From: Fluviicola sp.
GTDB taxonomy: Bacteria; Bacteroidota; Bacteroidia; Flavobacteriales_D; Crocinitomicaceae
NCBI GenBank assembly: GCA_029866325.1
Contig: JARWZO010000023.1
Location: 62,001 to 126,000 of the forward strand
Direction: 5' to 3'
DNA length: 64,000 nucleotides
A program made the position numbers and the translations under genes. The stretch's first letter is position 1. The number at the start of each line of letters is the position of its first letter. This document shows, one piece after another, positions 45,658-53,148 of the stretch. The notes beneath the pieces were generated by a model. The model searched no databases. It was not told where the DNA came from and saw only the letters and a program-made list of their open reading frames with translations.

Positions 45658-46902
45658 TCACCCGATCAACTGACTATACAACGCAAAATTTTCATTGAGG
45701 TACTCATACGAAAATCCAAATTCATCCAATCGGTCGAAAATAGGTTGTAAAAACGAACGGTCTTGCAACTCGATTCCCACCACAGCCGGACCACTTTCAC
45801 GGTTGTTTTTTTTGGAAAACTGAAAATAGGTAATGTCGTCATCCGGACCCAAAATTTGGGTCACAAAGGTCTTTAATGCTCCTGGGCGCTGTGGAAATTC
45901 AATGAGAAAATAATGCTTCATTCCGGCATGTAAGAGCGCGCGTTCCTGAATTTCAGGCATACGCAGATTATCGTTGTTGCTTCCACTCACGATACACACC
46001 ACATTTTTCCCTACAAACTCGGTTCCCGATTCCTCCAAAGCGGCAATCGTTAATGCTCCCGCCGGTTCTACAACCAAGGCTTCTTCGTTGTACAATCGCA
46101 AAATGGTCGCGCACACTTTTCCTTCTGGAACGGTTCTGATTTCGTCTAAGTGTGCCTTACAAATATCGAAGGTCAATTCACCCACGCTTTGCACAGCGGC
46201 ACCATCTACAAATTTATCGATGGTGGTTAACCGTGTTACTTCTCCATGCTCAATCGCAGCTTTCATGGAAGCCGCTCCGGCTGGTTCCACACCGATTACT
46301 TTTGTATCCGGACTCAATTGTTTCAATACCGTCAGCAATCCCGCCGCCAAACCGCCGCCGCCAATAGGAACCAATACCACATCAATGGGTGAATCGGTTT
46401 GTTCCAACAATTCCAAACCTATGGTTCCTTGTCCGGCAATTACCAGCGGGTCGTTGAAAGGATGAATAAACGGTAAGTTGTTTTTCTCGGAATAAGCAAG
46501 CGCCGCCGAATAGGCTGCATCGAAGGTATCTCCGCATAATTCAACCGAAACCCACGATTTCCCGAACAATTTCACCTGATTGATTTTTTGCTTGGGCGTA
46601 GTTTCTGGCATGAAGATGGTTCCGTTGACACCCATTTCGGCACAGGCAAATGCCACGCCTTGCGCATGATTACCAGCACTTGCGCATACGATTCCTACCG
46701 CTTTTTCGTCCGGAAGCAAGGAGTTCATTTTGGTAAATGCGCCTCTGATTTTGTAAGAGCGAACGCGTTGTAAATCTTCACGTTTCAGCCATACTTGCGC
46801 CCCCGATTGATGCGAAAGTTGCTGGTTGAGCAACAGCGGAGTAACCGGAATTACCCCGCGCATGGCTGTTGCTGCTTGTTTTACTTGATCGAGATTAACC
46901 AT
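45658..46902 (-). CDS. ilvA: Threonine dehydratase (biosynthetic)
   Basis: 414 residues from the ATG at 46902 (MVNLDQVKQAATAMRG), which overlaps the ilvC stop by 8 bp; the open frame 13 codons upstream is unlikely to be used. Fold II PLP enzyme converting threonine to 2-oxobutanoate, the first step to isoleucine. PLP-lysine motif VRSYKIRGAF near residues 47-56, and the phosphate-binding loop PIGGGGLAAG. One C-terminal ACT-like regulatory region (KHYFLIEFPQRPGALKTFV) is present, as in the short feedback-regulated form. Last gene of the ilv operon. Confidence 0.94.
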   Translation of the reverse strand: MVNLDQVKQAATAMRGVIPVTPLLLNQQLSHQSGAQVWLKREDLQRVRSYKIRGAFTKMNSLLPDEKAVGIVCASAGNHAQGVAFACAEMGVNGTIFMPETTPKQKINQVKLFGKSWVSVELCGDTFDAAYSAALAYSEKNNLPFIHPFNDPLVIAGQGTIGLELLEQTDSPIDVVLVPIGGGGLAAGLLTVLKQLSPDTKVIGVEPAGAASMKAAIEHGEVTRLTTIDKFVDGAAVQSVGELTFDICKAHLDEIRTVPEGKVCATILRLYNEEALVVEPAGALTIAALEESGTEFVGKNVVCIVSGSNNDNLRMPEIQERALLHAGMKHYFLIEFPQRPGALKTFVTQILGPDDDITYFQFSKKNNRESGPAVVGIELQDRSFLQPIFDRLDEFGFSYEYLNENFALYSQLIG

Positions 46903-47953
46903 GAACCACTTCGGTTTTTGGTCGCAGTTTGCGGACTTCACGACCTGTTTGCCACAATTCCGAATCGTGGATTTCTTTCAATTCCGTATTCAAGGTTTCG
47001 CGGTAATCGGCTTTGCTCCCTGCGGCGATCACACGTGCTGCTTCTCTGCCCGATTTTACTTCTTCGTACAATGATTCAAATACCGGAAGTGCTGCGTCGC
47101 GGAATTTCCCTTTCCAGTCCAACGCCCCGCGCTGTGCAGTTACCGAGGTGTTTGCATACATCCAATCCATACCGTTTTCGGCAACCAACGGCATCAAACT
47201 TTGGGTCAATTCTTCTACGGTTTCATTAAATGCTTCCGAAGGTGAATGACCGTTTTTACGTAAGACTTGATACTGTGCTTCGAACATTCCAGCCAAAGCT
47301 CCCATTAAAATTCCACGTTCGCCGGTGAGATCGGAATAGACTTCTTTGCGGAAATCGGTTTCAAACAAATAGCCCGATCCCACTCCGATTCCGAGTGCAA
47401 TGGCGGTTTCTTTGGCTTTCCCGGTGAAATCCTGATACACTGCTATACTCGAGTTGATGCCTTCGCCTTTTAGAAACAAGCGGCGAAGCGATGTTCCGGA
47501 TCCTTTCGGAGCTACCAATACCACGTCCACGTCTTTCGGTGGAACAATGCCTGTTTGTTCGTGAAAAGTGACACCGAAACCATGCGAAAAGTAAAGTGTT
47601 TTTCCAGTGGTCAATTGCGGTAAAACGGATTTCCACGCATCGATTTGACCGGCATCTGAAAGTAAATAACAGATCACCGAAGCTTGTTTACTAGCCATTT
47701 CAATGTCGAATAAGGTTTCTCCCGGAATCCAGCCGTCTTCCAAGGCTTTTTGCCAGCTTTTTCCACCTTGGCGTTGACCAACAATGACGTTGAAACCGTT
47801 GTCTCTGAGATTTAATGATTGTCCCGGACCTTGCACGCCGTAACCGATCACAGCGATGGTTTCGTTTTTTAAGGTTTCGAGCGCTTGTTCGAGTGGGAAT
47901 TCTTCACGGGTAACTACTTGTTCTGCTACTCCTCCAAAATTGATTGTTGCCAT
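46895..47953 (-). CDS. ilvC: Ketol-acid reductoisomerase
   Basis: 352 residues. NADPH-dependent isomeroreduction of acetolactate and acetohydroxybutyrate. Rossmann motif IAVIGYGVQGPGQSLNLRD near residues 33-51; GQRQGGKSW carries the cofactor-specifying loop; metal-binding residues lie in DLTGERGILMG and in the C-terminal EELTQSLMPL region. The length fits a single knotted-domain form. 16 bp after ilvN and overlapping ilvA. Confidence 0.95.
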   Translation of the reverse strand: MATINFGGVAEQVVTREEFPLEQALETLKNETIAVIGYGVQGPGQSLNLRDNGFNVIVGQRQGGKSWQKALEDGWIPGETLFDIEMASKQASVICYLLSDAGQIDAWKSVLPQLTTGKTLYFSHGFGVTFHEQTGIVPPKDVDVVLVAPKGSGTSLRRLFLKGEGINSSIAVYQDFTGKAKETAIALGIGVGSGYLFETDFRKEVYSDLTGERGILMGALAGMFEAQYQVLRKNGHSPSEAFNETVEELTQSLMPLVAENGMDWMYANTSVTAQRGALDWKGKFRDAALPVFESLYEEVKSGREAARVIAAGSKADYRETLNTELKEIHDSELWQTGREVRKLRPKTEVVHG

Positions 47954-47969: not shown

Positions 47970-48488
47970 TTATACTAATTCGTTGATAAATGCTTCCAAT
48001 GTTTTCATCGGTTTGGTAACCGCTACTCTACCCGACCGGGCAAATTCCAAAAGGTCGAATGTGTCTAAATCGGCCACAATGTGATTGATCGCTTCTTCAT
48101 GACCGGTCAATTCAAATACGGCATAAGCCGGAGAAACCGATAACAGTCGCGCGTTGTGACGACGTATGATTTGCTCTAATTCAGTCATGCGGTTTTCATC
48201 CATTCTGACTTTCATCAGCGCTAATTCTTGGTAAACGATATCGGTATCACAGTGGTAAAAAGCCTTCAATACGTCGACTTGTTTTTCAAGTTGAGCCACC
48301 ACTTTACGCACCTGCAATTCAGTTTCGCGCAAAACAATCGTGTAGCGATATACATCTTTGAGTTCGGTTTCAGAAGCCGTAATGCTATCGATGTTGATGT
48401 GTCTTCGGGTAAAAATGATGGTCAATCGATTCAGGATCCCGATGGTGTTTTCGGTAAAAACCGATATATTGTATCGTTGCTTTTCCAT
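47970..48488 (-). CDS. ilvN: Acetolactate synthase small (regulatory) subunit
   Basis: 172 residues with an N-terminal ACT domain (YNISVFTENTIGILNRLTIIFTRRHINIDSIT), which binds valine for feedback inhibition. A second ACT-like half follows (LALMKVRMDENRMTELEQIIRR...AYAVFELTGHEEAINHIV). It is regulatory only. Starts 1 bp after the ilvB stop. Confidence 0.93.
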   Translation of the reverse strand: MEKQRYNISVFTENTIGILNRLTIIFTRRHINIDSITASETELKDVYRYTIVLRETELQVRKVVAQLEKQVDVLKAFYHCDTDIVYQELALMKVRMDENRMTELEQIIRRHNARLLSVSPAYAVFELTGHEEAINHIVADLDTFDLLEFARSGRVAVTKPMKTLEAFINELV

Positions 48489-48489
48489 G

Positions 48490-50190
48490 TTAATTGAGTC
48501 TTATTTCGGCTACCGAAGCGCCGGTTTCTATCATTGGGAATACGTTTTCTTCGCGTTCCACTACACATTCCAAAAAAGCGCTTCCTTCGGTTCTCAGCAA
48601 GGTTTCCAGCGCTTGTGAAAAAGCATGACCTGCATCTACCTGTTGAGCAGGAATGCGGTAACCTGAAACGATGGTCACAAAATCGGGATTCACGATTTCG
48701 GTAAACGAATAACGTCGGTCGAAAAACAGCTGTTGCCACTGGCGCACCATTCCCAAAAAATGATTGTTGAGGATAATGATTTTTACCGACAACCCATGTT
48801 GCAGAATGGTTCCCAATTCTTGAATAGTCATCTGAAAACCACCGTCACCAATGATGGCAACCACTGTTTTATCCGGACGTGCCAAACTGGCTCCAATAGC
48901 TGCGGGCAACGCAAATCCCATGGTTCCCAAACCGCCGGAGGTGATGTTGGTCCGAGCATTCAGATAGCTGAAATAACGAGAAGTAATCATTTGATGTTGA
49001 CCCACATCCGTCACCACAATCAAATCTTGGTGTTGTTTGTTCCAAGTGCTCAATTCATTTACAACACGCGCCATATTGAGCTTTTCCCTATCGGGAAAAA
49101 CAGCAGGTTCGATAACTTCAGCTCTTTCCACAGCTTCCAAATCGCGAAACTGTTGCAACCATTGACCATGTTGGTTTTCATTAACCAGATCGAAGAGCAA
49201 CTCCAAAGCTCGGTTTGCATCGGCATGAACCGCAACAGTAGCCGGAATGATTTTATTGAGCTCGGAAGCGTCGATATCGATGTGAATCACTTTCGCTTGT
49301 TTGGCATAACGCGATACATCTCCGGTAACGCGGTCATCAAAACGCATTCCAACTGCAATCAGCACATCGCATTCGTTGGTGAGTAAGTTGGGGGCATAGT
49401 TTCCGTGCATTCCTAAATAACCCACATACAAGGAATGATCTGCCGGAAAAGCTCCCAATCCCAACAAGGTTGATGCCACCGGAATGCCTGTTTTCTCCGC
49501 GAACTGAAGCAACCGTTCTTCGGCTTGACTCAACAAGATTCCTTGCCCGACCAACAAATACGGTTTTTGAGCGTTGTTGATCAGAGCTGCCGCTTCAGCC
49601 AACAATTCCACATCCGGCACAGGAACAGGGCGATAACTTCTGATTTCAGTGCACGGTTCGTAGTGAAAATCCGTAAGTCCGAACTGTGCGTCTTTGGTGA
49701 TATCGACCAATACAGGTCCGGGGCGGCCACTCGCGGCAATGTAAAATGCTTTTGCTAGCGCCGAAGCAATATCTTCTGCACGTGTTACCTGAATGTTCCA
49801 TTTGGTCACCGGCATCGAGATTCCGATCACATCCGTTTCCTGAAATGCGTCGGTTCCCAACAAATGCGAAGCCACCTGACCCGTAATACACACAAGCGGT
49901 GTGGAATCGATCAGTGCGTCTGCCAAACCGGTTATAAGATTCGTGGCGCCCGGACCCGAAGTTGCAAAGACAACACCCGTATGTCCGCCGGCTCTAGCAA
50001 AACCTTGTGCAGCGTGTACCGCACCTTGTTCGTGTCGCACCAAAATGTGGCGAATGGTTTCCTGATAATCGTACAAAGCATCATAAATGGGCATAATCGC
50101 TCCACCGGGATAACCGAATATGGTGCTGATGTTTTCTGATTGGAGGCATTTCATCACAGCCTCTGCTCCTGTTATGCGTTGTGTTTCCAT
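48490..50190 (-). CDS. ilvB: Acetolactate synthase large (catalytic) subunit
   Basis: 566 residues. Thiamine-diphosphate enzyme forming acetolactate or acetohydroxybutyrate. The catalytic Glu lies in LVRHEQGAVHAAQGFARA near 46-63; the FAD-domain region is ...VGMRFDDRVTGD; the ThDP-Mg motif is IIGDGGFQMTIQELGTI...NNHFLGMVRQWQ near residues 446-485. It is 1 bp after ilvD and pairs with IlvN. Confidence 0.96.
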   Translation of the reverse strand: METQRITGAEAVMKCLQSENISTIFGYPGGAIMPIYDALYDYQETIRHILVRHEQGAVHAAQGFARAGGHTGVVFATSGPGATNLITGLADALIDSTPLVCITGQVASHLLGTDAFQETDVIGISMPVTKWNIQVTRAEDIASALAKAFYIAASGRPGPVLVDITKDAQFGLTDFHYEPCTEIRSYRPVPVPDVELLAEAAALINNAQKPYLLVGQGILLSQAEERLLQFAEKTGIPVASTLLGLGAFPADHSLYVGYLGMHGNYAPNLLTNECDVLIAVGMRFDDRVTGDVSRYAKQAKVIHIDIDASELNKIIPATVAVHADANRALELLFDLVNENQHGQWLQQFRDLEAVERAEVIEPAVFPDREKLNMARVVNELSTWNKQHQDLIVVTDVGQHQMITSRYFSYLNARTNITSGGLGTMGFALPAAIGASLARPDKTVVAIIGDGGFQMTIQELGTILQHGLSVKIIILNNHFLGMVRQWQQLFFDRRYSFTEIVNPDFVTIVSGYRIPAQQVDAGHAFSQALETLLRTEGSAFLECVVEREENVFPMIETGASVAEIRLN

Positions 50191-50191
50191 G

Positions 50192-51865
50192 TTATTGATC
50201 TGTTACACAACCCAACGAAGCCGACGAAACACAGCGCATGTATTTGTACAAAACGCCCTGTGTTGCCGACGGTTTGGGTTGTTTCCATTCGTTTTTTCGT
50301 TGGTCTAATTCTTCTTCCGAAACACCCAATTGCAAACTGTTATTCTGCACATCGATGGTGATTTGGTCGCCGTTTTTGACGAGTGCTATTGGTCCGCCGA
50401 CTACACTTTCGGGTGAAATATGTCCGACCACAAAGCCGTGAGTTCCACCGGAAAATCGTCCGTCGGTGATCAGTGCAACTTTATCGCCTAAACCTGCGCC
50501 CATGATGGCAGAAGTCGGTTTCAGCATCTCGGGCATTCCGGGTCCGCCTTTGGGGCCGCAGCCACGAATCACGATCACTGTTCCAGGACTGATTCCTCCT
50601 TGTCTTACAACATCAATCAGATCGAATTCGTTTTCAAATACCTGCGCTTTTCCTTTGAAAAAATAACCCTCTTTTCCGCTGATTTTCGCCACAGAACCAT
50701 CGGGTGCAAGGTTTCCGAACAACATTTGCAATTGACCTTGCGCACTCACCGGATTTTCAACACGTCTAATCACATCCTGATCGACTGGCAAACAGGGAAC
50801 ATCCGTCAGATTCTCAGCAACCGTTTTTCCAGTCACCGTTAGGCAATTGCCATCTAGCATTCCTTGATTCCAGAGGTATTTCATCACAGCCGGTAAACCC
50901 CCAATTCGGTGTACATCTTCCATCAGGTATTTTCCACTCGGCTTGAGATCAGCTAACACCGGAACGCGATTACTAACGGCTTGAAAATCGTCTAGTGTAA
51001 GCGTAATTCCAACCGAATGCGCCATGGCGATCAAGTGGAGAACCGCGTTGGTAGAACCGCCCAATACAGAAACCACGGTCATTGCATTTTCGAAAGCTTT
51101 TCGCGTCATGATATCGCGTGGTTTGATGTCTCTTTCCAGCAGCAAACGCATTGCTTTTCCGGCTTCTTCGCATTCCTTTTGTTTGGCTTCGCTTAATGCA
51201 GGATTGGAAGACGTATACGGTAAACTCATTCCCAAAGCTTCTACTGCCGACGCCATCGTGTTTGCGGTATACATACCTCCGCAAGCTCCCGCACCCGGAC
51301 AGGCATTTCGGATGATTCCCTTAAAGTCTTCGGGCGTCATTTTTCCGGCACTTTTTTGTCCAAGTGCTTCAAAAGCCGAAACGATATTTAGTGACTCTCC
51401 TTTCCACTTTCCGGAGTGAATCGTTCCACCGTAAACCATAATAGCAGGTCGGTTCAGTCGCCCCATAGCGATTACGGAACCGGGCATGTTTTTATCGCAG
51501 CCAACCACGGCGATTAAACCGTCGTACCACTGTGCGCCCATTACGGTTTCAATAGAATCTGCTATCACATCTCTTGAAACAAGCGAAAAACGCATGCCTG
51601 TTGTGCCATTGGAAATTCCGTCACTCACTCCGATGGAGTGAAAAACAAGTCCTACCAAATCGCTTTTTTGCACGCCTTCTTTTACTGTTTTGGCCAAAGC
51701 GTTCAAGTGCATGTTGCAGGTATTTCCCTCGTAACCTGTGCTCACGATTCCAACTTGAGCTTTATTGAAATCTTCATCAGAAAATCCGATTCCGTAGAGC
51801 ATGGCTTGCGCTGCAGGTTGTGTTTCGTCTTGCGTGACAGTTTTACTGTATTTATTGAGTTCCAT
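50192..51865 (-). CDS. ilvD: Dihydroxy-acid dehydratase
   Basis: 557 residues. Fe-S cluster dehydratase producing the 2-oxo acids of valine and isoleucine. Cluster cysteines are visible in [10 protein letters not shown] (near 49), GCDKNMPG (near 122) and [17 protein letters not shown] (near 194). C-terminal active-site region [23 protein letters not shown]. Starts 3 bp after the ilvE stop. Confidence 0.96.
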
Positions 51866-51868
51866 TGC

Positions 51869-52759
51869 CTAGATATGTAATGATTGATATTCGTTTACCG
51901 ATACACGTAATTTGTAGCGACGTTGGATGAGATCGCTCACCGATTCTTCCCATGCAAGCGGAAATACATAGTCATCAAACGCTTCTAATCCGGCTACTTC
52001 GGCGGCAGTTCCACAGAAAAAAGCAGCATCGGCGGTTTTGATTTCTTCGGGCGTAAAGTGTCGTTCTTCTACTCTGATTTCGAGTTCTTTTGCCAGTTCA
52101 AACACCGTAGCTCTTGTGATTCCGGAAAGGATATTTCCGAGTGGAGACGTATACAACACGCCGTCTTTTTCGTAGAAAAAATTCGCCCCAGGTCCTTCAG
52201 CAACGTAACCGTTTTGGTCGGTGAGTAACGCTTCATCGAAACCACGTTGTTTGGCTTCGGTAGTTGCCAATATGCTGTTGGTGTAATGACCTACCACTTT
52301 CGCTTCTACGTGGCACGCTTTCGGATTGGGGCGCTGATAGGGAGAAAGTGTTACCCGCAAGCGCTGATCGCCGAGGTATTTGTCCCATGTCCAAGCCATG
52401 ATTACCACATGTACTTCATTCGTTGGTGTAAGCGACATGTTACTCCCCAGATAAACCAACGGCCGTATGTATGCATCTTTGAGGTTGTTCTTGTGAAGCA
52501 ATTCGTAGGTGATCGCTTCCAACTCTTCAGAAGAATAAGGCAATTCGATGTGCATCATTCGCGCAGAATAGTGCAAGCGATCATAATGATCCTTCGCTTT
52601 AAAAATGCGGGTTCCGTCGGAGGTGTCATACGCACGGATTCCTTCAAACACGCCGTTACCATAATGGAGTGTTTGACTGTAGAGATCGGTTGTGGCATCT
52701 TTTGCCGAAACAAAATCGCCATCTTTAAAAATTACTGTGTGTTCGTTGAAATAATTCAT
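51869..52759 (-). CDS. ilvE: Branched-chain amino acid aminotransferase
   Basis: Fold IV PLP aminotransferase making Val, Ile and Leu from their 2-oxo acids. The preferred start is the ATG at 52759 (MNYFNEHTVIFKDGDF), which matches the usual family N-terminus and leaves 21 nt after the leader terminator. The ATG at 52780 follows the terminator T-run directly and leaves no room for ribosome loading. Seen: LHYGNGVFEGIRAY (31-44), catalytic Lys154 in EAKVVGHYTNS, and EGPGANFF. 296 residues. First structural gene of the operon and the one directly behind the tandem attenuators. Confidence 0.93.
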   Translation of the reverse strand: MNYFNEHTVIFKDGDFVSAKDATTDLYSQTLHYGNGVFEGIRAYDTSDGTRIFKAKDHYDRLHYSARMMHIELPYSSEELEAITYELLHKNNLKDAYIRPLVYLGSNMSLTPTNEVHVVIMAWTWDKYLGDQRLRVTLSPYQRPNPKACHVEAKVVGHYTNSILATTEAKQRGFDEALLTDQNGYVAEGPGANFFYEKDGVLYTSPLGNILSGITRATVFELAKELEIRVEERHFTPEEIKTADAAFFCGTAAEVAGLEAFDDYVFPLAWEESVSDLIQRRYKLRVSVNEYQSLHI

Positions 52760-52780
52760 ATTTATTGATTGTTTTGACAT

Positions 52781-52811
52781 AAAAAAACCCTTCCGGCTTT
52801 CGCGAGAAGGG
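52781..52811 (-). terminator. Second (ilvE-proximal) attenuator terminator
   Basis: On the minus strand, CCCTTC (52806-52811) pairs with GAAGGG (52788-52793) and is followed by seven T. The 5' arm CCTTCTC can instead pair with GAGAAGG (52833-52839) at the end of leader peptide 2, which would prevent the terminator. Confidence 0.85.
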
Positions 52812-52837
52812 CTACATTGTAGTATAGATTTTCCTTC

Positions 52838-52912
52838 TCACTCCCAATTGGGAATAATGATACGAATGACGATTCCTTGCACAAGCGCTACGCGCATTTC
52901 TAATTGTTTCAT
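52838..52912 (-). CDS. ilv leader peptide 2 (24 residues)
   Basis: Short frame, ATG at 52912, TGA at 52838-52840. It begins MKQLEMRVALVQ and continues GIVIRIIIPNWE; ten of 24 residues are Ile, Val or Leu, with five Ile between positions 14 and 20. The stop codon overlaps the segment (52833-52839) that can pair with the terminator 5' arm. A ribosome that reaches the stop therefore hides the antiterminator, while one stalled at the Ile run leaves it free. Confidence 0.75.
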   Translation of the reverse strand: MKQLEMRVALVQGIVIRIIIPNWE

Positions 52913-52939
52913 CTTTTTTTCAATTTAATTTCCGAGCAT

Positions 52940-52968
52940 AAAAAAAGCCGCTCCTTGTGGGAACGGCT
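52940..52968 (-). terminator. First (distal) attenuator terminator
   Basis: On the minus strand, AGCCG...CGGCT (52964-52968 with 52946-52950) with an inner TCC/GGA extension, followed by seven T. The segment TCCCAC (52957-52962) within it can instead pair with GTGGGA (52999-53004) in leader peptide 1. Confidence 0.85.
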
Positions 52969-52989
52969 CTCAATTATCTTCACGTATAA

Positions 52990-53064
52990 TTATACCAATC
53001 CCACCGTATCGTCGCTAATGACGATCACGCTAATAAGAATAATATGGATACGTTGTGTGTTCAT
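52990..53064 (-). CDS. ilv leader peptide 1 (24 residues)
   Basis: Short frame, ATG at 53064, TAA at 52990-52992. It begins MNTQRIHIILISVIVIS and ends DDTVGLV; 12 of 24 residues are Ile (6), Val (4) or Leu (2), with eight of them in the run from positions 8 to 16. Codons 14-15 (ATCGTC) can pair with codons 18-19 (GACGAT). That hairpin competes with the antiterminator pairing of codons 21-22 (GTGGGA), so classical segments 1 to 4 of an attenuator are all present. Confidence 0.8.
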   Translation of the reverse strand: MNTQRIHIILISVIVISDDTVGLV

Positions 53065-53073
53065 TTCTTGGGG

Positions 53074-53081
53074 CAAATGTA
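53074..53081 (-). promoter_or_regulatory. -7 promoter box of the ilv operon
   Basis: Minus-strand TACATTTG, full match to TAnnTTTG, 9 nt before the ATG of leader peptide 1. The transcript 5' end would then be only a few bases from that ATG. Confidence 0.6.
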
Positions 53082-53108: not shown

Positions 53109-53148
53109 AAATACAAGTCATCCATGTTATCTTGAATGACTTGTATTT
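53109..53148. terminator. Hairpin between the anchor-L gene and the ilv promoter
   Basis: Perfect 13-bp inverted repeat AAATACAAGTCAT (53109-53121) and ATGACTTGTATTT (53136-53148), A/T-rich at both ends so it could terminate in either direction. It lies 58 bp beyond the stop of the gene at 53206, which reads toward it. Confidence 0.7.

What the first reader, a model, noticed from the sequence alone, without database searches (positions are those of the whole stretch)
52781..53064. Tandem leader-peptide attenuators in front of the ilvEDBNCA operon
Seen directly: two different 24-codon frames rich in Ile/Val/Leu (12 and 10 of 24 residues), each followed by a hairpin with a seven-T run, in series between a -7 box and ilvE. 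In unit 1, codons 14-15 (ATCGTC) can pair with codons 18-19 (GACGAT). Alternatively GTGGGA (52999-53004) can pair with TCCCAC in the terminator (52957-52962). In unit 2, GAGAAGG at the leader stop codon (52833-52839) can pair with the terminator 5' arm CCTTCTC. Established: E. coli ilvGMEDA uses a single such leader. Inference: two sequential attenuators could sharpen or grade the response, or respond to different charged tRNAs. I know of no described tandem ilv attenuator in Bacteroidota.
Basis: partly seen in the sequence, partly recalled or inferred. Interest (0 to 1): 0.78.

Follow-up and report, generated by a model that had tools for sequence, protein, structure and literature searches.

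The report
Two attenuators in series before ilvE
The genes for making isoleucine and valine in this Fluviicola-like bacterium are very likely switched by two ribosome-read RNA terminators placed one after the other, an arrangement that recurs in related bacteria, whereas the textbook cases have only one.

Summary
Two 24-codon Ile/Val/Leu-rich frames lie in series on the minus strand before ilvE-D-B-N-C-A. Each is followed by an intrinsic terminator whose 5' arm can instead pair with RNA at the leader's stop codon. In 117 distinct ilvE loci of Bacteroidia a strict detector finds such a unit in 102 and two or more in 19 (plus 3 by eye), against 4/702 and 0/702 in shuffles. Terminator and antiterminator both covary in both unit kinds. 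Ile/Val/Leu codons become rare within about 12-18 nt before the antiterminator, the reach of a ribosome. A TAnnTTTG box precedes 13/19 first units but 1/20 later ones, which favours one promoter and a series arrangement. Unit 1 hides its antiterminator in the last codons; unit 2 builds it on the TGA stop. That order recurs. Best reading: two ribosome-mediated attenuators of the same signal in series, multiplying repression. Not supported: the codon 14-15/18-19 hairpin and the different-tRNA idea. Tandem leader attenuators are published for Salmonella mgtCBR (other signals, no intrinsic terminators). My searches showed none for an amino-acid operon. This is a new variant of a known kind. No RNA was measured.

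The parts
53074..53081 (-). -7 promoter box TACATTTG (TAnnTTTG); transcription start expected about 5 nt before leader 1
   Evidence: Sequence; consensus and position from PMC9723704 (passages); 13/19 first units have this box versus 50/1626 background windows
52990..53064 (-). leader peptide 1, 24 codons plus TAA, 12 I/V/L
52994..53004 (-). antiterminator strand 1, GTGGGATTGGT, inside the last codons of leader 1
   Evidence: pairing; covariation in 11 type A units
52957..52967 (-). shared strand: GCCGTTCCCAC, 5' arm and loop of terminator 1
52940..52971 (-). intrinsic terminator 1 with seven-T tail
   Evidence: fold -18.0 kcal/mol
52838..52912 (-). leader peptide 2, 24 codons plus TGA, 10 I/V/L
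52833..52841 (-). antiterminator strand 2, GTGAGAAGG, overlapping the TGA stop codon
   Evidence: pairing; covariation in 44 type B units
52802..52810 (-). shared strand: CCTTCTCGC, 5' arm and loop of terminator 2
52781..52813 (-). intrinsic terminator 2 with seven-T tail
   Evidence: fold -15.2 kcal/mol
51869..52780 (-). ilvE (likely start 52750)
   Evidence: TIGR01122 above cut-off; start by comparison with relatives
50192..51865 (-). ilvD
   Evidence: TIGR00110 above cut-off
48490..50190 (-). ilvB
   Evidence: TIGR00118 above cut-off
47970..48488 (-). ilvN
   Evidence: TIGR00119 above cut-off
46895..47953 (-). ilvC
   Evidence: TIGR00465 above cut-off
45658..46941 (-). ilvA (ORF as listed; start codon probably downstream of 46941)
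   Evidence: TIGR02079 above cut-off

Best explanation
Two ribosome-mediated transcription attenuators lie in series behind one promoter and read the same amino acids. In each unit, a ribosome that reaches the leader's stop codon covers the antiterminator strand, so the terminator forms and RNA polymerase stops. A ribosome stalled on Ile/Val/Leu codons, for lack of charged tRNA, stays upstream and leaves that strand free. The strand then pairs with the terminator's 5' arm and transcription continues. Unit 1 keeps the antiterminator strand in its last codons; unit 2 starts it at the TGA stop codon. The genes are transcribed only if both units are passed, so repression should multiply and the response should be steeper than with one unit. 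Shown by sequence: anatomy, recurrence, covariation, spacing, order, promoter-box position. Inferred: ribosome stalling, termination, the multiplication of the two steps.
For: Units in 102 of 117 loci, two or more in 19 after dropping one doubtful call; shuffles 4/702 and 0/702. Without a pairing filter, 128 units pair with their own terminator arm at mean 18.07 against 12.96 (sd 0.31, max 13.78 of 200) for permuted arms. Antiterminator and terminator both covary: type B 31 and 29 double-changed cells against 10.7 and 7.6 in shuffles, type A 11 and 19 against 2.7 and 6.1. I/V/L share falls from .89 at 18 nt to .17 at 9 nt before the antiterminator over all 122 units, with the same fall in both position classes. 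TAnnTTTG box: 13/19 first, 1/20 later units. Within tandems, own pairing beats cross pairing in 40 of 42 ordered pairs, 2 ties.
Against: No RNA data. The units used for searches were first filtered for some pairing, and the rows of A1 and A2 were chosen by me (44 of 49 and 11 of 39), so absolute pairing levels are inflated; the unfiltered test is the fair one. The sister species G005 (Fluviicola sp. SJ411) has only one unit, so two are not essential even in this genus. The box is missing before 6 of 19 first and 58 of 81 single units, though called starts may be wrong there. L076 has an exact box before unit 2, and L003 and L008 show one by eye. At equilibrium the full unit 1 stretch folds as terminator and the full unit 2 stretch as antiterminator, so unit 1's antitermination must rely on folding order.
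Confidence: 0.86

Rival explanations
1. Two parallel promoters, each with its own single attenuator: transcripts pass only one unit, so the units do not act in series.
For: L076 has an exact TAnnTTTG box before unit 2, and boxes are visible by eye in L003 and L008. The window has TAAATTG eight nt before leader 2, one base short of the consensus.
Against: Box in 1 of 20 later units against 13 of 19 first ones (background 50 of 1626 windows). The spacer from terminator 1's stem to leader 2 is 14-32 nt in 11 of 20 spacers, 30 in the window, too short for a whole promoter outside the terminator.
Confidence: 0.1
2. The units listen to different amino acids (for example Ile in one, Leu or Val in the other), so the pair integrates two signals.
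For: The leaders differ in sequence; leader 1 has 4 Val and leader 2 has 3, and leader 2 carries an Ile triplet.
Against: Pooled shares of I, V and L are close in distal and proximal leaders. Both window leaders carry Ile and Val codons upstream of the antiterminator.
Confidence: 0.12
3. Terminator 1 only ends the upstream gene and leader 1 is incidental; a single attenuator (unit 2) regulates.
For: 82 of 117 loci have one strict unit, so one unit can suffice.
Against: The upstream gene has its own hairpin with a T tail before the promoter (about 53109-53148). Distal units with leader, covarying antiterminator and box occur in other families too. The sister species keeps unit 1, not unit 2.
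Confidence: 0.04
4. A metabolite riboswitch or T-box rather than leader-peptide control.
For: None found.
Against: No Rfam family reaches its gathering score in the window. In the 501-base region 12 sub-threshold matches are listed, best E 0.42, including Phe_leader at E 1.6 and Thr_leader at E 4.9 far below their cut-offs. The coding signal is position-specific.
Confidence: 0.02

Closest known systems
Ribosome-mediated leader-peptide attenuators of amino-acid operons (E. coli ilvGMEDA, trp, his; recalled)
   Same: Short leader rich in regulatory codons, antiterminator against intrinsic terminator, biosynthetic operon downstream
   Different: Two units in series; no conserved protector hairpin in the leader; very short 5' UTR expected; antiterminator built on the stop codon (unit 2) or last codons (unit 1)
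Tandem attenuators of Salmonella mgtCBR (PMC3641672, passages and section 11 read)
   Same: Two leader ORFs in one mRNA leader
   Different: There the signals are ATP and proline and the hairpins do not resemble intrinsic terminators; here the same amino-acid class twice, and two intrinsic terminators
Leader-peptide attenuation clues upstream of amino-acid operons in Flavobacterium psychrophilum (PMC9723704, passages and section 19)
   Same: Same phylum, same principle
   Different: The term ilv does not occur in its main text and the read section gives no pairing model or tandem; supplements not read
Tandem riboswitches, B. clausii metE (as described in PMC3641672)
   Same: Two anticipated terminators on one transcript
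   Different: Direct metabolite sensing, no leader peptides

Membership tests
Ribosome-mediated leader-peptide attenuator | Short ORF with clustered codons for the pathway's end products | tested here: met
   12/24 and 10/24 I/V/L; recurrent in 102 of 117 loci
Ribosome-mediated leader-peptide attenuator | Intrinsic terminator between leader and first gene | tested here: met
   both units; covarying stems
Ribosome-mediated leader-peptide attenuator | Mutually exclusive antiterminator | tested here: met
   covariation and permutation
Ribosome-mediated leader-peptide attenuator | Regulatory codons placed so that a stalled, but not a finishing, ribosome frees the antiterminator | tested here: met
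   I/V/L share .89 at -18 nt to .17 at -9 nt; ribosome cover about 12 nt as stated in PMC4833913 (passages)
Ribosome-mediated leader-peptide attenuator | Protector (1:2) hairpin as in the E. coli type (recalled) | tested here: not met
   mean z +0.28 over 122 units; I take this as a feature of the enterobacterial type, not of all leader attenuators
Ribosome-mediated leader-peptide attenuator | Termination relieved by starvation for the amino acid | not testable with these tools
   no RNA data
Tandem attenuator in series | Two complete units on one transcript | tested here: inconclusive
   two complete units and box placement 13/19 first, 1/20 later point to one transcript; start sites not measured
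mgtCBR-type tandem attenuator | Two different signals (ATP and proline) | tested here: not met
   both leaders I/V/L-rich
T-box or known riboswitch | Match to an Rfam family | tested here: not met
   0 at gathering score

The most novel reading that the evidence does not exclude
A two-stage attenuator cassette of fixed order (unit with the antiterminator in or next to the last codons, then unit built on a TGA stop), with stems that do not cross-pair and one promoter, is a recurrent module of the Bacteroidia ilvE operon. It travels with the operon between families, gains and loses units often (one to three), and works as an RNA AND gate that steepens the response to one signal.
Probability: 0.5. 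Interest if true: 0.72.

Novelty: new variant of a known kind. Interest (0 to 1): 0.58.

Why it matters
Attenuation is taught as one leader, one terminator. Here evolution repeatedly kept two, and once three, sensors of the same signal in series, with natural single-unit relatives for comparison. That makes a simple question testable: does stacking ribosome-read terminators buy lower leakage or a steeper response? It also supplies sequence-level models for amino-acid control in Bacteroidota, where my searches of the open-licence library showed only brief mentions.

Tried and rejected
Rfam at gathering score and at low threshold: nothing relevant. The first detectors mistook ends of upstream genes for leaders (L001, L004, L068, L110, L117, L140, L142 and others); a strict filter was added. 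It still calls L068's first unit, which I dropped, and misses units that I see by eye: L008, L074, L137 counted as tandem and L069, L098, L130, L133 as single, in the tree only. 128 loci were cut to 117 by dropping 10 copies and one truncated contig.

Alignment rows were chosen. Of 122 strict units, sorted 49 as type B, 39 as type A and 34 as neither. I aligned 44 of the 49 (dropping L078 unit 1, L103 unit 2, L125, L126, L143) and 11 of the 39, those that resemble the window's unit 1. In the covariation controls two measures are weak for type A: further pair types are reached by 47 of 500 and 32 of 500 shuffles.

Functional 1:2 hairpin in leader 1: not conserved. Different amino acids for the two units: no clear difference.

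Other copies in the own genome: models R1 and R2, both trained with the window's own units, score highest at the ilv leader. Of the other listed hits (52 rows in the two calls, ilv included) I read 8 places; none shows an amino-acid-rich leader, and by eye they are ends of genes or of RNA genes. The rest were not read.

ilvD-first operons: of 48 match rows I examined the 29 new loci. 16 have no ilvE nearby; 2 of these 16 carry one strict unit before ilvD and none carries two.

Own-versus-cross pairing with stem arms alone was weak (29 of 42) because type B pairing uses loop bases; with loop bases 40 of 42, 2 ties. The held-out test of R2 is mixed: of 17 tandems not in its training set the distal unit scores higher in 12, the proximal in 4 (L076, L077, L083, L128), neither in 1 (L122) (my tally).

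Full report
What is there. On the minus strand the window holds, in order, a TACATTTG box (53081-53074), leader 1 (53064-52990), terminator 1 with seven T (52971-52940), a 27-nt gap, leader 2 (52912-52838), terminator 2 with seven T (52813-52781), and the operon ilvE-ilvD-ilvB-ilvN-ilvC-ilvA (one family each above its curated cut-off). The ATG at 52780 lies in the tail of terminator 2. Relatives' ilvE starts at the equivalent of 52750, the likelier start.

Where it comes from. In a sample of 150 genomes of the family, 41 have this ilvD at E 1e-120 and 41 this ilvE at E 1e-90; of the window's genus only the window's genome and G005 do.

Recurrence. ilvE loci were collected from genus to class and from named genomes: 128 loci, 117 after removing 10 copies and one cut contig. 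A unit was defined as a short I/V/L-rich frame, then an intrinsic terminator, with a segment near the stop codon able to pair with the terminator's 5' arm. Units were found in 102 of 117 loci; 20 had two or more. One of these, L068, is doubtful and was dropped, leaving 19. In 702 dinucleotide shuffles, 4 had one and none had two. With three more seen by eye (L008, L074, L137), 22 loci are tandem in the tree; they fall in seven family codes (f1, f3, f27, f28, f32, f49, f65) plus a Bizionia MAG, whose code cannot be matched. L103 has three units of similar stem.

Two mutually exclusive structures. In 44 type B units (unit 2 of the window among them; 44 of 49 so sorted) the antiterminator helix is paired in 82.6% of cells with 31 double-changed cells (shuffles 10.7), and the terminator in 92.8% with 29 (7.6). 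In 11 type A units (unit 1 among them; 11 of 39 so sorted, chosen for likeness) the figures are 92.6% with 11 (2.7) and 95.3% with 19 (6.1). Sliding the partner by one to three columns lowers every measure in all four tables, though a terminator slid by one column still pairs 71.7% of cells in type B. In type A the measure 'further pair types' is reached by 47 and 32 of 500 shuffles. Members had been picked with a pairing filter, so I repeated the test without it: 128 units pair with their own arm at mean 18.07, permuted arms 12.96 (sd 0.31, highest of 200: 13.78).

Reading by the ribosome. Counting codons back from the antiterminator, the I/V/L share is .89 in the -21 and -18 nt bins.59 at -15.32 at -12.17 at -9 and .09 at -6 (122 units). 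The fall is seen both in units with the antiterminator in the leader and in units with it at or after the stop. A ribosome covers about 12 nt ahead of the codon it reads (PMC4833913, passages; 12-15 nt from the P site in PMC3641672, section 11). So a ribosome stalled on the last I/V/L codons just leaves the antiterminator free, and one at the stop codon covers it. In the window the last such codon upstream of the antiterminator starts 15 nt (unit 1) and 14 nt (unit 2) before it. Folding is compatible. Unit 1: antiterminator up to the 5' arm -18.8, terminator -18.0 kcal/mol; the whole stretch folds as terminator at equilibrium. Unit 2: -14.9 and -15.2; the whole stretch folds as antiterminator. 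With the region under a ribosome at the stop codon removed, both fold as terminator.

Two kinds of unit in a fixed order. Taking the last unit of each tandem as proximal and all earlier ones as distal, distal units end in TAA or TAG in 16 of 20 and proximal units in TGA in 18 of 19 (Fisher p 2.2e-6; without the pairing filter 18 of 23 and 20 of 21). Relatedness is not corrected for in that p value. The TGA is part of the common proximal antiterminator (G)TGAGAAGG, while the distal one lies in the last codons (for example before a GMV or GLV end) or just after the stop. A covariance model built from 11 type A units scores the distal above the proximal unit in 12 of 17 held-out tandems, the reverse in 4, neither in 1 (my tally). 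Own pairing exceeds pairing with the partner's terminator in 40 of 42 ordered pairs, with 2 ties, when loop bases are included, and in 29 of 42 with stem arms alone, so most stems look insulated from each other.

Series or parallel. TAnnTTTG within 45 nt of the start codon: 13 of 19 first units, 1 of 20 later units, 23 of 81 singles, background 50 of 1626 windows. Spacers between terminator 1's stem and leader 2 are 14-32 nt in 11 of 20; four come out negative because the longest frame was taken. A second promoter is likely only in a few (L076; by eye L003, L008). In the window the box would put the start about 5 nt before leader 1, using the position given for flavobacterial boxes (PMC9723704, passages); this is inference.

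Evolution. On the ilvE tree the tandem label needs 14 changes (7 forced by well supported branches; shuffled mean 20.6, none of 500 as low), so it is clustered but gained or lost often. The tree is a quick one with long-branch warnings and mixes family codes, as expected if the operon moves between families. The sister species' single unit looks like an ortholog of unit 1 (local score 38 against a shuffled maximum of 22.5; 21.5 for unit 2 against 21.0), so unit 2 was lost there or gained here.

What is known. Tandem leader attenuators are described for Salmonella mgtCBR as 'a singular example' with ATP and proline signals and hairpins unlike intrinsic terminators (PMC3641672, passages and section 11). 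Leader-peptide clues upstream of amino-acid operons are reported for Flavobacterium psychrophilum (PMC9723704, passages and section 19) and leader-like sORFs for Bacteroides thetaiotaomicron (PMC7366714, passages). PMC2965389 (passages) reports tandem terminators for rimP; the term ilv does not occur in it. Searches showed no tandem attenuator of an amino-acid operon and none in Bacteroidota. The library holds open-licence papers only; Lopatovskaya et al. 2010, seen only in a reference list, was not read and may treat single attenuators in this phylum.

Verdict. The multiplied or steeper response is inference.

Noticed in passing
L103:888-1238 (G137): Three attenuator units in series with similar stems (AGTCCTGAC, AAGTCCTGAC, AAGCCCTGAC), so pairing between units looks possible; apparently a recent local multiplication.
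   Followed up: partly
L002 upstream of ilvE (Fluviicola sp. SJ411): Sister species has only the likely ortholog of unit 1, with ilvE starting where unit 2 would be.
   Followed up: yes
window 52750-52780: ilvE is probably 10 codons shorter than the longest frame; the ATG at 52780 belongs to the terminator tail.
   Followed up: partly
L139, L140, L142 (family code f52): Single-unit leaders with a Leu-rich run (for example VILLNLLLLNILGKK), which suggests leucine sensing there.
   Followed up: no
L006, L070, L105: No leader or terminator found before ilvE, which seems to follow an upstream gene closely: attenuation lost or promoter elsewhere.
   Followed up: no
window 53109-53148: AT-rich hairpin with a T tail between the choice-of-anchor L gene and the ilv promoter, probably the upstream gene's terminator.
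   Followed up: no
ilvE tree: Members of the window's family code f1 are scattered over the ilvE tree, which suggests horizontal movement of the operon; not tested against a species tree.
   Followed up: no
L229, L233: Single attenuator units of the unit-1 kind before ilvD in loci without ilvE nearby.
   Followed up: no
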